Virus record (IMG/VR): IMGVR_UViG_3300025865_000006
Coordinates: 1 to 64,000 of that record
Strand: one strand, 5' to 3'
DNA length: 64,000 bases
Source: a virus
The notes beneath the pieces are model-generated. The model saw only the letters and a list, made by a program, of their open reading frames with translations, did no database searches and was not told the DNA's origin. The translations under genes were made by a program, and so were the position numbers. Below are positions 3,690 through 42,860 of this stretch, piece after piece. Each line of letters begins with the position of its first letter. Positions within the stretch are counted from its first letter, which is position 1.

Positions 3690-3693
3690 AAGC

Positions 3694-3768
3694 GCTGGCG
3701 TGTAGAAAGTCCGTAACATTTATCGGCATAGCGGTAGACAGTCCGACGTGCTCTGGATAGGGGCCAGT
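3694..3768 (+). ncRNA. Candidate structured spacer RNA (direct repeats, closing stem)
   Basis: The spacer between the zinc-ribbon gene and tRNA-Lys(TTT) can close on itself (GCTGGC 3694-3699 with GCCAGT 3763-3768, one G-U). It contains the direct repeat GTAGA-N-AGTCCG at 3702-3713 and 3734-3745, and a TCGG/CCGA pair. No Rfam family recognised. Confidence 0.35.
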
Positions 3769-3774
3769 AATTAT

Positions 3775-3849: not shown

Positions 3850-3863
3850 AAAACTTTATTAGG

Positions 3864-3933
3864 TTTACATGCGAAAGAGACGATAAGGGTGCCACGCCTA
3901 TCGGGTAGAAGAAAGATGTAAATAGGGTCTACC
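3864..3933 (+). ncRNA. Candidate pseudoknot RNA between the two lysine tRNAs
   Basis: TTTACAT (3864-3870) pairs perfectly with ATGTAAA (3916-3922), and GGTAGA (3904-3909) pairs perfectly with TCTACC (3928-3933). The helices interleave, giving an H-type pseudoknot. A third hairpin, CGATA/TATCG (3881-3885/3899-3903), sits inside. There is no open frame of note. I cannot assign it to a riboswitch family. Confidence 0.45.
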
Positions 3934-3940
3934 AACTATT

Positions 3941-4725: not shown

Positions 4726-4728
4726 AAA

Positions 4729-4809
4729 ATTATGCCGAAGATAGTCTGTATGAAAGCTCTTGAAAGATGGCTATAAGGTAGCGGGGGCCTTGTCACACAC
4801 CCACATAAT
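4729..4809 (+). ncRNA. Candidate structured spacer RNA abutting tRNA-Arg(TCG)
   Basis: The spacer is closed by ATTATG (4729-4734) with CATAAT (4804-4809), ending exactly one base before tRNA-Arg. Inside, ATAGTC (4741-4746) pairs with GGCTAT (4769-4774), and AAGG pairs with CCTT (4775-4791). No coding frame is evident. Confidence 0.35.
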
Positions 4810-6510: not shown

Positions 6511-6515
6511 TCATA

Positions 6516-6632
6516 GGGGTGTGCGAAGCTAATAACTTCCTCCGTAGAGTCTAGTCAGGACTTATACTAGAACGAGCCGGGTGTACAACAACTGTCAACA
6601 GTAATGACTATCTTAGGCTGGTTAGTCGCCCC
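6516..6632 (+). ncRNA. Candidate multibranched RNA upstream of tRNA-Tyr
   Basis: The 130-base gap has no convincing reading frame. GGGGT (6516-6520) can pair with GCCCC (6628-6632), enclosing TCTAGT/ACTAGA (6550-6571), ACTG/CAGT (6591-6602), GACTA/TAGTC (6606-6627) and GAAG/CTTC (6525-6539). A structured RNA or processing element is plausible; no known family recognised. Confidence 0.35.
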
Positions 6633-6642
6633 AATAAAATTA

Positions 6643-6728
6643 GGATCGGTTGAGCAATTGGCTGGCTCGCCTGACTGTAAATCAGGTCCCTTTAGGGCGT
6701 GTAGGTTCAAGTCCTATCCGGTCCACCA
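6643..6728 (+). tRNA. tRNA-Tyr(GTA), class II
   Basis: Acceptor GGATCGG/CCGGTCC, anticodon stem CCTGA/TCAGG with loop CTGTAAA (anticodon GTA), long variable arm, T loop TTCAAGT, encoded CCA. Confidence 0.93.
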
Positions 6729-6730
6729 AT

Positions 6731-6814
6731 GGGGTTGACTTAGAAGTTCCCACGGGGGGATTAAGTTCTTGCCAAAGGAAAAACTCGGGGGGCAGCGCCC
6801 CGACAACTCCACCA
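6731..6814 (+). ncRNA. tRNA-like element without a normal T loop or anticodon arm
   Basis: An 84-base unit between tRNA-Tyr and tRNA-Met, with only a few bases on each side. It has a complete acceptor stem (6731-6737 with 6804-6810, one G-U), discriminator A and encoded CCA. The T-stem position is occupied by a GC helix (6785-6790 with 6798-6803), but its loop is GGCAGCG rather than TTCGANT. The 5' part folds into one hairpin (ACTTA 6738-6742 with TAAGT 6762-6766) instead of D and anticodon arms. It is either a decayed tRNA or a tRNA mimic. Confidence 0.55.
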
Positions 6815-6815
6815 T

Positions 6816-6892
6816 TGCGGGATAGAGAAGTGGTCTATCTCATCTGTTTCATAAGCAGCTAATCGTGGGTCCGAATCCCACTCCCGCAACCA
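6816..6892 (+). tRNA. tRNA-Met(CAT)
   Basis: Acceptor TGCGGGA/TCCCGCA, loop TTCATAA (anticodon CAT), T arm GTGGG/CCCAC with TCCGAAT, encoded CCA. The first pair is T-A rather than an initiator-type mismatch, so it is probably elongator; an Ile reading through modified C34 cannot be excluded. Confidence 0.87.
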
Positions 6893-7179: not shown

Positions 7180-7205
7180 AAGCCCTGAGAAATCAGGGCT
7201 TTTTT
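7180..7205 (+). terminator. Rho-independent terminator
   Basis: AAGCCCTGA (7180-7188) and TCAGGGCTT (7193-7201) form a perfect nine-pair stem with a GAAA tetraloop, followed by a U-run. It separates the tRNA region from the packaging genes. Confidence 0.9.
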
Positions 7206-7882: not shown

Positions 7883-9457
7883 ATGGAAGACGAAGAAGTA
7901 TTCGAACAGGAGTGGGCGCTGGCACAAATCCTTGCGCACCCAGTCCTATTTAGAGAATTTATAAATCAGGATGATCCTAACTGGCACGGCCTAGAGTTAC
8001 ACGAAAGGGCTTGGTCAACCTGTACATCTAGCTATGTTTCAATGTGCTGTGGGCGATCTGTGCACAAAACAACCACCATGATAGAGTTACTTTATTATTG
8101 GATGGTTAATAAGATGTTTATCCCCGGTGATCCGGGGCTTTTTGTTTTGGTTCCTAATAAGGCACAGAAGGATTTGGCGTTCTTTAGAATTCGATCAGCG
8201 TGCCTTACACACTGGCTTATAAAACAGTATGGTTCCTCAATAAATGTATCCGAAGGAAAGATAGACTTCGCCAACGGGTTCCAGCTATTGATGCGTATTG
8301 CGGGTTCAGCAGGATCGGAAGCAAACGTTATTGGTGTACACACATTCCGTATATGGGTAGACGAGGCTCAGGACTTGCCGTGGAGAACATGGCTCTCCCT
8401 ACAAAACTGTCTAAAGCCTGAAATAGATGGCTACCAGATGCTAACTTCTGGTGTACCTAATGGTGAACGAAGAGAAAACGTTCTCTATACAACAGACCAG
8501 TTAGATGAGAAGTATATTAAGTTTAATGCTCCCCAAACTATTATGAGTTGGTGGACCCCCGAACTAGAATATACAAGACGAAAAGAATATTTCTCACTCC
8601 AAGAAGATTCAGAAGATTTCAAGCACTACGTTCTTGGTCAGCACGGAGTACCTACATTCTCTGTATTCGATAGAACACGATTCCTAACCGATGATTACGA
8701 AGTACAGCTAATAGTACTTAATCACCATATGTTTGAAGGGTGCAAGAGAAAGGATATTGATGGGCAGGTACGCTACCACCTAGAGGAAATCCTCGCACCA
8801 CCGCCTATAGAGCCTTACAGAGGCGCTATACCGAGAGTCGGATTGGGATATGATGTAGGGTTCTCTCCTGATCCCGGTGTCTTTTTTATCATGTATGAAG
8901 ATTTACAGACAGGTAAATGGAGGAATCTTGCCCGAATAGTTATGCAACGTGTAGAGTATGCTTTACAGAGAGAGGTATTAATCTGGCTAGATAGAATATA
9001 TAAATTTGAATTCATCGGTATTGATATGGGTGGACCGGGCAAGGTTCAGTATCAAGACCTAGCCGGTGATCTAACCCAGTATGGAGAATATAACTATATT
9101 CAAAGACTATACCCTGTAGAGTTTGGTTCCTTTATTGTTGTTGCTGTTGATGAAGACGGCGTAGAGAAAAAGGAGCAGATGAAGAAGCACTCTGTTGAGA
9201 CATTATCTAGATGGGTACAGCAAGACAGGTCTTTCGTATTCTCAAAGGATGACGATAACCTGATGGCGGAACTGGAAAGAACAAAATTCCGACGAACTAT
9301 TACAGGAGAGCCGGTCTATTTCACAGACGATGACCACCAAATGGCCGCAATGATGTGCGCTGTTATGGCATATGAAAACTCATACGGTGTTCCCGTGTTA
9401 CATTTAAAGGAAGAAGTCAAAATTAGGCTCATACCTGCTAAGTGGTTAGTGGCTTAA
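7883..9457 (+). CDS. terL: Terminase large subunit
   Basis: 524 residues, a normal length. The ATPase has a variant Walker A (CGRSVHKTT, about residues 56-64) and Walker B IWVDEAQD near residue 157. The C-terminal RNase H-like nuclease shows acidic residues at GYDVG (about 322), IGIDMGG (about 380) and DDDHQ (about 481). It is the ATP-driven motor and headful or site-specific nuclease that packages DNA through the portal at 9476. Confidence 0.93.
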   Translation: MEDEEVFEQEWALAQILAHPVLFREFINQDDPNWHGLELHERAWSTCTSSYVSMCCGRSVHKTTTMIELLYYWMVNKMFIPGDPGLFVLVPNKAQKDLAFFRIRSACLTHWLIKQYGSSINVSEGKIDFANGFQLLMRIAGSAGSEANVIGVHTFRIWVDEAQDLPWRTWLSLQNCLKPEIDGYQMLTSGVPNGERRENVLYTTDQLDEKYIKFNAPQTIMSWWTPELEYTRRKEYFSLQEDSEDFKHYVLGQHGVPTFSVFDRTRFLTDDYEVQLIVLNHHMFEGCKRKDIDGQVRYHLEEILAPPPIEPYRGAIPRVGLGYDVGFSPDPGVFFIMYEDLQTGKWRNLARIVMQRVEYALQREVLIWLDRIYKFEFIGIDMGGPGKVQYQDLAGDLTQYGEYNYIQRLYPVEFGSFIVVAVDEDGVEKKEQMKKHSVETLSRWVQQDRSFVFSKDDDNLMAELERTKFRRTITGEPVYFTDDDHQMAAMMCAVMAYENSYGVPVLHLKEEVKIRLIPAKWLVA

Positions 9458-9475: not shown

Positions 9476-11176
9476 GTGGAAGAGAAAGCAGTAGTTAAAC
9501 TGGCCAAAGCGTCGGTACTAAATGGCGCTACCTCTCCTTTCGAGGGGGGAGATTCATTTTATATGCCCGGTGGTATGGTAGATCAGCAGTTTCAGATAGC
9601 AGGACTATCCCCTGAGAAGCTGATTATTCCACGAAACTATCACTCCGTAATAAAGATGTGTTATGATTTCTATCAACGTGGGGGATCGGTTGGAACAGTT
9701 ATAAACCGTTTACAGGAATTCTCAATAACAGATATTAGAAACGGTCAAGTTAGAAAGACGACTGACGAGGCTAATGTTTTCTATAAGACTATTCTTACTC
9801 GTAACCCTTCTAAAATGTCTAGATTTCTTAGTAACATGGCCTTGGAATATTACCTATCAGGGCTGCTACTTCCTAGAACTGATTATCAAGAAATAAAGGG
9901 ACGTGACCTTTCTCCTGATCTAAAGCCTAACAAGACCTACAAGATGCCGACCTTTGATTGGTATCCACCCTTACTTACATACGTAGAGTGGATTGGGTGG
10001 GGAAAGCGAGCCTTCTTTGTAAAGGTACCTTCCACAGATATTAAATTGATACGCGGAAAGGACATAAAAAATCAGCAGCTTAAACAACGATTGAGTATGT
10101 ATGAAACGCAGTTTCCTATGTGGGTAGAGGATATTAGAAACGGTGCAGATAAGATTCAGATTCCTGAACCTGTTAACTATATAATGAGAAAGGAAACATC
10201 TTATAGTCCCTATCCTACCCCATATCTTTACAACGTTCTAGAGCCGCTTACATATAAGCAGCAACTTAGACGGATGGACTTTGCAGTTGCATCCCGAGTT
10301 ATCAATGCCATCCTTCTTGTTCAGGAAGGATCGGATATGTTCCCCCTTACAGAAGAGACAAGAGAGAATCTTGATGAGTTGAAGGCTCAAATTTTGGCGC
10401 GTGCCAATAATCCTAAACTCATGGAAAGACTATTCATCTTATTCTCTAACCATACCACACAACTAACGTGGATTCATCCAGACGTTTCTGCGATGTTAAA
10501 TCAGGACAAGTATCGTCAGGTTAATGAGGAACTATCCGAAGGATTAGGGTTCGCAGGAATTCTAGGCGGCGGCGGCTCGGGAGGTTCAGCGAGGGGAGCA
10601 GCAGCAGAGGTAAGTACGTGGGGAATACTCCCAATGATGGACCAGTTACGTGTTGAGTTAATAGACTGGGTTACAACGGAGTATGAACTTGTTGGGGATA
10701 TGAATGGATTTAGAAACATCCCTGTTCCTGAGTTTAGGCCCATCAAACTACAAGATGCTGTAAAGACAGCAGCGGTATTTGCTCAGGCATTTAAAGAGGG
10801 TAACATCAGTAGATCAACCAGAGATGATATGTTAGGACTTAACTTCACTTCTGAAATTGAATTAATGAAGGACGAGTTAGTCAGTATGAAAAACATGCCC
10901 CCATTCCCACCAATGCCTTATAGCCCACTTCCACCGGGAGGCGCGTTTGGGCAACCCCCACCGGGACAGGGACCGGGAGCAAAAACAATTAATGGTAGAC
11001 CAGTAGGGAAGCAGAATCCTGCGGTCAGTCCAAGGTCTACAGGCACACCTAAAATTGGTGCAGAGCTAATGGAAGATGAGGAAGTACTAAACTTAATAAA
11101 CAAGATAGCCTTATCTACGGGGATCGAGATTACAGATGAGAAGCTAGAAGCTATAGGCGGAATATTAGAAGAGTGA
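9476..11176 (+). CDS. Portal protein
   Basis: 566 residues from GTG, with TAGGAG at 9461-9466. Position between terL and the protease/scaffold gene, and the long helical central region, fit a portal: the dodecameric ring through which DNA enters the head. A Gly-rich loop near residues 362-372 (GGGGSGGSARG) and a Pro-rich stretch near 475-500 interrupt the fold; the tail (residues 535-566) is acidic. Other phage portals also have disordered termini. Confidence 0.85.
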   Translation: MEEKAVVKLAKASVLNGATSPFEGGDSFYMPGGMVDQQFQIAGLSPEKLIIPRNYHSVIKMCYDFYQRGGSVGTVINRLQEFSITDIRNGQVRKTTDEANVFYKTILTRNPSKMSRFLSNMALEYYLSGLLLPRTDYQEIKGRDLSPDLKPNKTYKMPTFDWYPPLLTYVEWIGWGKRAFFVKVPSTDIKLIRGKDIKNQQLKQRLSMYETQFPMWVEDIRNGADKIQIPEPVNYIMRKETSYSPYPTPYLYNVLEPLTYKQQLRRMDFAVASRVINAILLVQEGSDMFPLTEETRENLDELKAQILARANNPKLMERLFILFSNHTTQLTWIHPDVSAMLNQDKYRQVNEELSEGLGFAGILGGGGSGGSARGAAAEVSTWGILPMMDQLRVELIDWVTTEYELVGDMNGFRNIPVPEFRPIKLQDAVKTAAVFAQAFKEGNISRSTRDDMLGLNFTSEIELMKDELVSMKNMPPFPPMPYSPLPPGGAFGQPPPGQGPGAKTINGRPVGKQNPAVSPRSTGTPKIGAELMEDEEVLNLINKIALSTGIEITDEKLEAIGGILEE

Positions 11177-42640: not shown

Positions 42641-42860
42641 GTATGACCCATCGGATTGCCCCAAATGTGGTGATTGGCGTGACGGTCCACAATCTGATTG
42701 TGCTAATTGCGGTTATCATGGGCACCGTGCTTCCGAAGAGGATGATCGTGGTGGAGCAATGGACGCAAAGTGTATTGATTGTGGAGTAGTAATTTGGCGT
42801 TCAGGCTTTGGGCTTGTTGGTCCGTGGAGGGTAAAAATTGATAAACGAGATACCATTTAA
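42630..42860 (+). CDS. Small zinc-knuckle protein, 76 residues
   Basis: Three cysteine pairs: CPKCGDW, CANCGYH and CIDCGV. It overlaps both neighbours (11 and 23 bases), so translation is coupled within the replication operon. Nucleic-acid or protein binding through zinc is likely; exact role unknown. Confidence 0.65.
   Translation: MINKYDPSDCPKCGDWRDGPQSDCANCGYHGHRASEEDDRGGAMDAKCIDCGVVIWRSGFGLVGPWRVKIDKRDTI

What the first reader, a model, noticed from the sequence alone, without database searches (positions are those of the whole stretch)
6731..6814. tRNA-like RNA with acceptor stem and CCA but no T loop or anticodon arm
Seen: between tRNA-Tyr and tRNA-Met, within two or three bases of each, lies an 84-base unit with a seven-pair acceptor stem, discriminator A and encoded CCA. 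The T-stem slot is a GC helix with loop GGCAGCG, and the 5' half is a single long hairpin. Known: RNase P and CCA-end processing act on flanking tRNAs, so this piece would be released with mature-like ends. Inference: a decayed tRNA, or a tRNA mimic that titrates a tRNA-targeting host factor or serves as a primer or decoy.
Basis: partly seen in the sequence, partly recalled or inferred. Interest (0 to 1): 0.8.

Follow-up and report, generated by a model that had tools for sequence, protein, structure and literature searches.

The report
Phage-encoded stripped-down tmRNA (tRNA-like half)
This phage carries, between two of its tRNA genes, a diverged copy of the tRNA-like half of tmRNA (the RNA bacteria use to rescue stuck ribosomes) without the message half; relatives sit unannotated in many phages and probably act as decoys that jam the host's rescue system.

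Summary
6731-6814 is an 84-nt tRNA-like unit: 7-bp acceptor with G3:U70, A73 and CCA, a 6-bp T-position stem with loop GGCAGCG, and one hairpin in place of the D and anticodon arms. It is not a decayed tRNA. The same slot in related phages (terminase 85-86% identical) holds an 88-89-nt homologue with a normal T loop (UUCGACU) whose best Rfam match is tmRNA. More distant relatives carry 118-125-nt versions just before tRNA-Met. The window copy differs from these in stems but keeps all 13 pairs through changes on both sides, so it was selected as RNA for most of its history. Pattern scans found similar 73-133-nt units in about a dozen unrelated phage lineages, including the cultured Arthrobacter phage Elezi. 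None was found in 84,980 prokaryote genomes. They match a kind reported once for phages: the 'TLD only' tmRNA of mycobacteriophage DS6A; a similar molecule strongly inhibits tmRNA, perhaps by titrating SmpB. Best reading: a phage decoy against trans-translation. The window copy is an aberrant variant, having lost both halves of the elbow contact (D-loop GG, T-loop UUC). New variant of a known but barely described kind.

The parts
6731..6814 (+). 84-nt TLD-only tmRNA-like element (whole unit, acceptor to encoded CCA)
   Evidence: homologues in the same slot in L002, L005, L019, L028, L012
6731..6737 (+). 5' acceptor strand GGGGUUG; G3 pairs with U70
   Evidence: 7 of 7 pairs; G3:U70 in all 21 family members tabulated; pair 5:68 changed on both sides against L002, pair 6:67 against L005
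6738..6784 (+). 47-nt insert in place of D and anticodon arms: hairpin, ending in AAAC before the T stem (tmRNA has GGAC there); D-loop-like GG motif of relatives is missing
   Evidence: folds; relatives have 8-9 nt with GG, one hairpin, then NNAC
6785..6803 (+). T-position arm: 6-bp stem UCGGGG/CCCCGA with loop GGCAGCG (relatives: UUCRACY)
   Evidence: two stem pairs changed on both sides against L002 and L005, all kept
6804..6814 (+). 3' acceptor strand CAACUCC, discriminator A73, encoded CCA
6643..6728 (+). flanking tRNA-Tyr(GUA)
6816..6892 (+). flanking tRNA-Met(CAU); the element lies just 5' of tRNA-Met in all six lineages of this phage family that have it
7180..7201 (+). terminator-like hairpin plus T run, the first downstream in this orientation apart from a match inside tRNA-Met
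   Evidence: consensus match only

Best explanation
The element is a phage-borne tmRNA reduced to its tRNA-like domain: acceptor, T arm and a short P2-like hairpin, with no tag reading frame and no pseudoknots. It is co-transcribed with its tRNA neighbours and trimmed to mature ends by RNase P and tRNA 3' processing (inferred). The host AlaRS can charge it through G3:U70 and A73 (inferred from known identity rules). It then occupies SmpB and/or other trans-translation factors without offering a message, so that host trans-translation is blocked during infection (inferred; reported in the literature for a similar molecule). The window copy belongs to this family by descent and position but has lost the D-loop GG and T-loop UUC that form the elbow, so it is either a specialised or a weakened version.
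For: Same-slot homologues in L002/L004/L006 and L005 give tmRNA RF00023 as best Rfam family (19.9 bits E 9e-7; 21.7 bits E 1.5e-7), matching both ends of the model; for the window itself the best matches are alpha_tmRNA and permuted tmRNA. L149, of the same build, scores 45.5 bits, E 1.4e-17, with 303 model positions absent and the tmRNA motifs GGGUUCGACGG and CCGGAC in place; L151 26 bits. Across ten members all 130 pair cells of acceptor and T stem are paired, with 26 changes on both sides; slid controls pair 50-63%. G3:U70 in all 21 members; outside the window family the search patterns fixed the outer acceptor letters, so there the free test is pairs 5:68 and 6:67 and the T stem. D-loop-like GG, a single hairpin and an AC before the T stem recur in most members. 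Scan control: 12 hits in viral contigs, all with paired stems, against 14 hits in 84,980 prokaryote genomes, none with stems. No full tmRNA above cut-off in 18 related records, no smpB in the 8 searched. Literature: DS6A 'TLD only'; a similar molecule, chargeable or not, strongly inhibits tmRNA, perhaps by titrating SmpB (PMC4131195; PMC11915505, both citing Mao et al. 2009).
Against: No expression or binding data. The window copy lacks the T-loop and D-loop letters expected for elbow formation and SmpB contact, and scores only 26 bits with a model made without it. The DS6A sequence and the Mao et al. paper were not in the collections, so the comparison rests on two later papers' sentences. 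Most members have a 13-bp acceptor/T stack where tmRNA has 12 (Elezi has 12). The benefit to the phage is not shown.
Confidence: 0.6

Rival explanations
1. Decaying relic: the ancestor was a working TLD-only tmRNA (as in L002/L005), but the window copy has lost function; loss of the T loop and D-loop GG is the first stage of decay.
For: Both halves of the elbow are gone; the element is 54-60% identical to its homologues while the flanking tRNA-Tyr is 72-86% and tRNA-Met 61-69%.
Against: Six stem letters differ from L002 and from L005, yet all 13 pairs are kept; simulated drift with as many stem changes keeps all 13 in well under 0.2% of cases. Acceptor with G3:U70, A73, CCA and the AAAC before the T stem are intact.
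Confidence: 0.2
2. Alanine-accepting minihelix decoy for something other than SmpB: the window copy keeps all AlaRS determinants but not the elbow, so it would tie up AlaRS, feed alanine to a non-ribosomal acceptor, or bait a tRNA-targeting defence factor.
For: G3:U70 with A73CCA on an intact helix is enough for AlaRS by established identity rules; the phage carries its own broad tRNA set, and other phage tRNAs in the group have altered T loops, as if T-loop recognition were being avoided.
Against: The homologues are plainly tmRNA-like, so SmpB or the ribosome is the simpler target; no candidate acceptor enzyme was sought in the whole genome.
Confidence: 0.12
3. Ordinary tRNA gone wrong: a decayed tRNA-Thr or tRNA-Ala.
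For: Some relatives have tRNA-Thr(UGU) between Tyr and Met, and tRNA-Ala shares G3:U70.
Against: The phage has intact tRNA-Ala and tRNA-Thr elsewhere; in the homologues the tmRNA model beats the tRNA model of the same clan; no anticodon arm in any member; the 8-9-nt D-loop-like segment cannot hold a D stem.
Confidence: 0.05
4. Attachment-site footprint: the 3' half copies the end of a host tmRNA gene used for integration.
For: Phages that integrate into tmRNA genes carry such 3' ends (general knowledge; PMC10865867).
Against: Members have the matching 5' acceptor strand that co-varies with the 3' strand; the unit lies inside a tRNA cluster.
Confidence: 0.03

Closest known systems
TLD-only tmRNA of mycobacteriophage DS6A (Mao et al. 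2009, as cited in PMC4131195 and PMC11915505)
   Same: Phage-encoded tRNA-like domain of tmRNA with no tag reading frame; similarly small by those papers' account
   Different: DS6A was a single case; its sequence could not be fetched, so no alignment was made. The window copy lacks a normal T loop and sits in a tRNA cluster
CDS-less mitochondrial tmRNAs (RF02544) and ~65-bp Mallomonadaceae plastid tmRNAs (PMC11915505)
   Same: tmRNA that lost the message part
   Different: Organellar; mitochondrial ones usually permuted, and co-occurring with a nuclear smpB
Standard tmRNA (RF00023)
   Same: Acceptor with G3:U70 and CUCCACCA, D loop without stem, stem from D loop to just before the T arm, AC before the T stem
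   Different: No pseudoknots, no tag, 73-133 nt instead of ~350-400; T stem mostly 6 bp instead of 5
tRNA-Ala
   Same: G3:U70, A73, CCA
   Different: No D stem, no anticodon arm

Membership tests
TLD-only (CDS-less) phage tmRNA, DS6A type | tmRNA-like acceptor with G3:U70, A73 and CCA end | tested here: met
   window; G3:U70 and A73 in all 20 relatives, a few of which encode UCA, CCU or CAA at the end
TLD-only (CDS-less) phage tmRNA, DS6A type | both ends of the tmRNA tRNA-like domain in one short contiguous unit, message and pseudoknots absent | tested here: met
   84 nt; L002, L005 and L149 match tmRNA model positions 1-374 with the middle missing
TLD-only (CDS-less) phage tmRNA, DS6A type | tmRNA/tRNA T loop UUCRANY and D-loop GG forming the elbow | tested here: not met
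   window loop GGCAGCG and no GG in the D segment; met in the same-slot homologues
TLD-only (CDS-less) phage tmRNA, DS6A type | no conserved tag reading frame | tested here: inconclusive
   the longer L019 and L028 loops differ by an indel, so any short frame is not shared (sequences, read by eye); no formal test
TLD-only (CDS-less) phage tmRNA, DS6A type | sequence similarity to the DS6A element itself | not testable with these tools
   no DS6A record under the accessions tried
TLD-only (CDS-less) phage tmRNA, DS6A type | inhibits host trans-translation / binds SmpB | not testable with these tools
   needs experiment; literature statement only
Standard tmRNA RF00023 | reaches the family's gathering score (47 bits) | tested here: not met
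   no tmRNA match to the window at gathering score; closest member L149 45.5 bits
tRNA | D stem, anticodon arm, T loop; ARAGORN or RF00005 match | tested here: not met

The most novel reading that the evidence does not exclude
The window copy has been re-tooled: it keeps the alanine-acceptor half under selection while its elbow (T-loop UUC with D-loop GG) has been replaced, giving an alanine-accepting decoy aimed at a different factor from SmpB, for example AlaRS or a T-loop-recognising defence or modification enzyme.
Probability: 0.15. Interest if true: 0.75.

Novelty: new variant of a known kind. Interest (0 to 1): 0.6.

Why it matters
TLD-only tmRNA was reported for one phage. Finding the same build in about a dozen lineages, several lying just upstream of terminase genes and one in a cultured phage with a laboratory host (Elezi on Arthrobacter globiformis), suggests that blocking or diverting ribosome rescue is a common phage strategy that annotation misses: ARAGORN reports no gene at these units, and those tested stay under the Rfam cut-off. 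It makes directly testable the question of how phages deal with trans-translation.

Tried and rejected
Decayed tRNA: no relative has a matching tRNA. Encoded tag: a GGN-ACN-CRN-stop frame in L002/L005 and an AU-rich frame in L019 were considered by eye; not shared across members. attP footprint: rejected because both acceptor strands co-vary. Hits in Streptomyces, mycobacterial and other phage intergenic regions: only T-arm-like matches without a tmRNA-like acceptor. Genome-contig hits: all chance. Viral hits L152, L154, L155, L156, L162, L163, L164, L167: T stem and/or acceptor not fully paired, chance. L120 and L109: genuine full-length tmRNAs by Rfam; Wakanda annotated as tmRNA; L170 and L172 flagged by ARAGORN as permuted tmRNAs. 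L099 4819-4912 and L158 5200-5273: uncertain, not counted. DS6A genome and Mao et al. 2009 could not be obtained. A MAFFT alignment of all members misplaced the 5' ends and was not used for counts.

Full report
Observation. Acceptor GGGGUUG/CAACUCC pairs fully and contains G3:U70, which with A73 is the alanine identity element (established knowledge). The T-position stem is six pairs, the loop GGCAGCG. ARAGORN and Rfam at gathering score see nothing. Its folding energy alone is only modestly unusual.

Relatives in the same phage family. The terminase found 30 loci and then 41 with a profile. In L002/L004/L006 and L005 (85-86% terminase identity) the Tyr-Met gap holds 88-89-nt units with the same acceptor design, a 6-bp T stem and a normal T loop UUCGACU. 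More distant L019, L028 and L012 have 118-125-nt units ending just before tRNA-Met. Others lack it; some have tRNA-Thr(UGU) between Tyr and Met. So this is not an ordinary tRNA decayed here.

What it is. Against Rfam the homologues score best with tmRNA (19.9 and 21.7 bits, below the cut-off of 47), matching model positions 1-374 with the middle missing. The common architecture is acceptor, an 8-9-nt stretch containing GG, one hairpin, NNAC, T arm, acceptor. That is the tRNA-like domain of tmRNA with helix P2 closed on itself.

A wider family. Degenerate patterns over IMG/VR found the same build in about a dozen other lineages: L113/L116/L118/L119, L114/L115, L117, L110, L149, L150, L151, L153, L157/L161, L159, L160, L165, L166. 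L149 carries textbook tmRNA motifs and scores 45.5 bits. Those patterns fixed the outer acceptor letters and, the T-stem length, so the free test is pairs 5:68 and 6:67 and the T-stem letters. The first pattern over 84,980 prokaryote genomes gave 14 hits, none with stems. Covariation over ten members: 130 of 130 cells paired, 26 changes on both sides, slid controls 50-63% paired (without the window 117 of 117). Among named phages, Arthrobacter phage Elezi has an unannotated unit at 42,676-42,755 (33.4 bits); its T stem is five pairs.

The window copy. It differs from each homologue in six stem letters, yet all 13 pairs hold; neutral simulation with as many stem changes keeps all in well under 0.2% of cases. 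A model trained without it ranks it first in its own genome (26.4 bits, E 0.0026). It has lost the D-loop GG and the T-loop UUC together, the two sides of the elbow contact. That is either re-tooling or recent loss of function.

Mechanism. [quoted passage not shown] PMC11915505). No smpB was found in the eight phage records searched and no full tmRNA above cut-off in eighteen, which fits a decoy acting on host machinery. Shown here: anatomy, homology, covariation, distribution. Inferred: processing, alanylation, SmpB titration, benefit to the phage.

Setting. Units recur near packaging genes: the window family about 1.1 kb before the large terminase gene, L110 about 0.9 kb before the small terminase gene, L153 0.14 kb before the large one, L113-L119 about 1.5 kb before terminase genes, Elezi at the genome end whose other end begins with terminase. 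Others (L150, L160) lie in or beside tRNA clusters.

Verdict. A real, selected RNA; a diverged member of a barely described kind; probable anti-trans-translation decoy, with the window copy's own activity uncertain.

Noticed in passing
genome record G000 100716-100799 (L037:16716-16799): tRNA-Ser(GCU) with T loop AUCGUCA, missed by ARAGORN. The same AUCGUNN loop, an exchange of U54/A58 for A54/U58, occurs in tRNA-Asn of G014 (9853-9928), tRNA-Asp of L014 (3138-3212) and tRNA-Pro of L017 (1650-1726).
   Followed up: partly
L171:449-528 (Arthrobacter phage Elezi 42676-42755): Unannotated TLD-only tmRNA-like unit in a cultured phage, near the genome end between two HNH endonuclease genes.
   Followed up: partly
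window 7883-9457 and L110, L113-L119, L153, L171: In several unrelated lineages the element lies within about 1.5 kb upstream of terminase genes; cause unknown.
   Followed up: partly
L169:160-530 (Mycobacterium phage Reindeer 56438-56808): Looks like an unannotated full-length tmRNA (GGGGCUG ... CAGCUCC, 371 nt) between tRNA-Trp and tRNA-Asn; ARAGORN misses it.
   Followed up: no
window 6511-6642, 3690-3774, 3850-3940, 4726-4809: Gaps of about 85-130 bases in the tRNA cluster without recognised tRNAs that look structured (for example UUUACAU...AUGUAAA around 3864-3924); not identified.
   Followed up: no
L113:3021-3461, L116:8637-9077, L118:663-1103, L114:6335-6760, L117:9964-10425: A small HExxH (SprT-like by eye) protein gene lies beside the element in this group; no PHROG match for the three tested, and none in Pfam for two.
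   Followed up: partly
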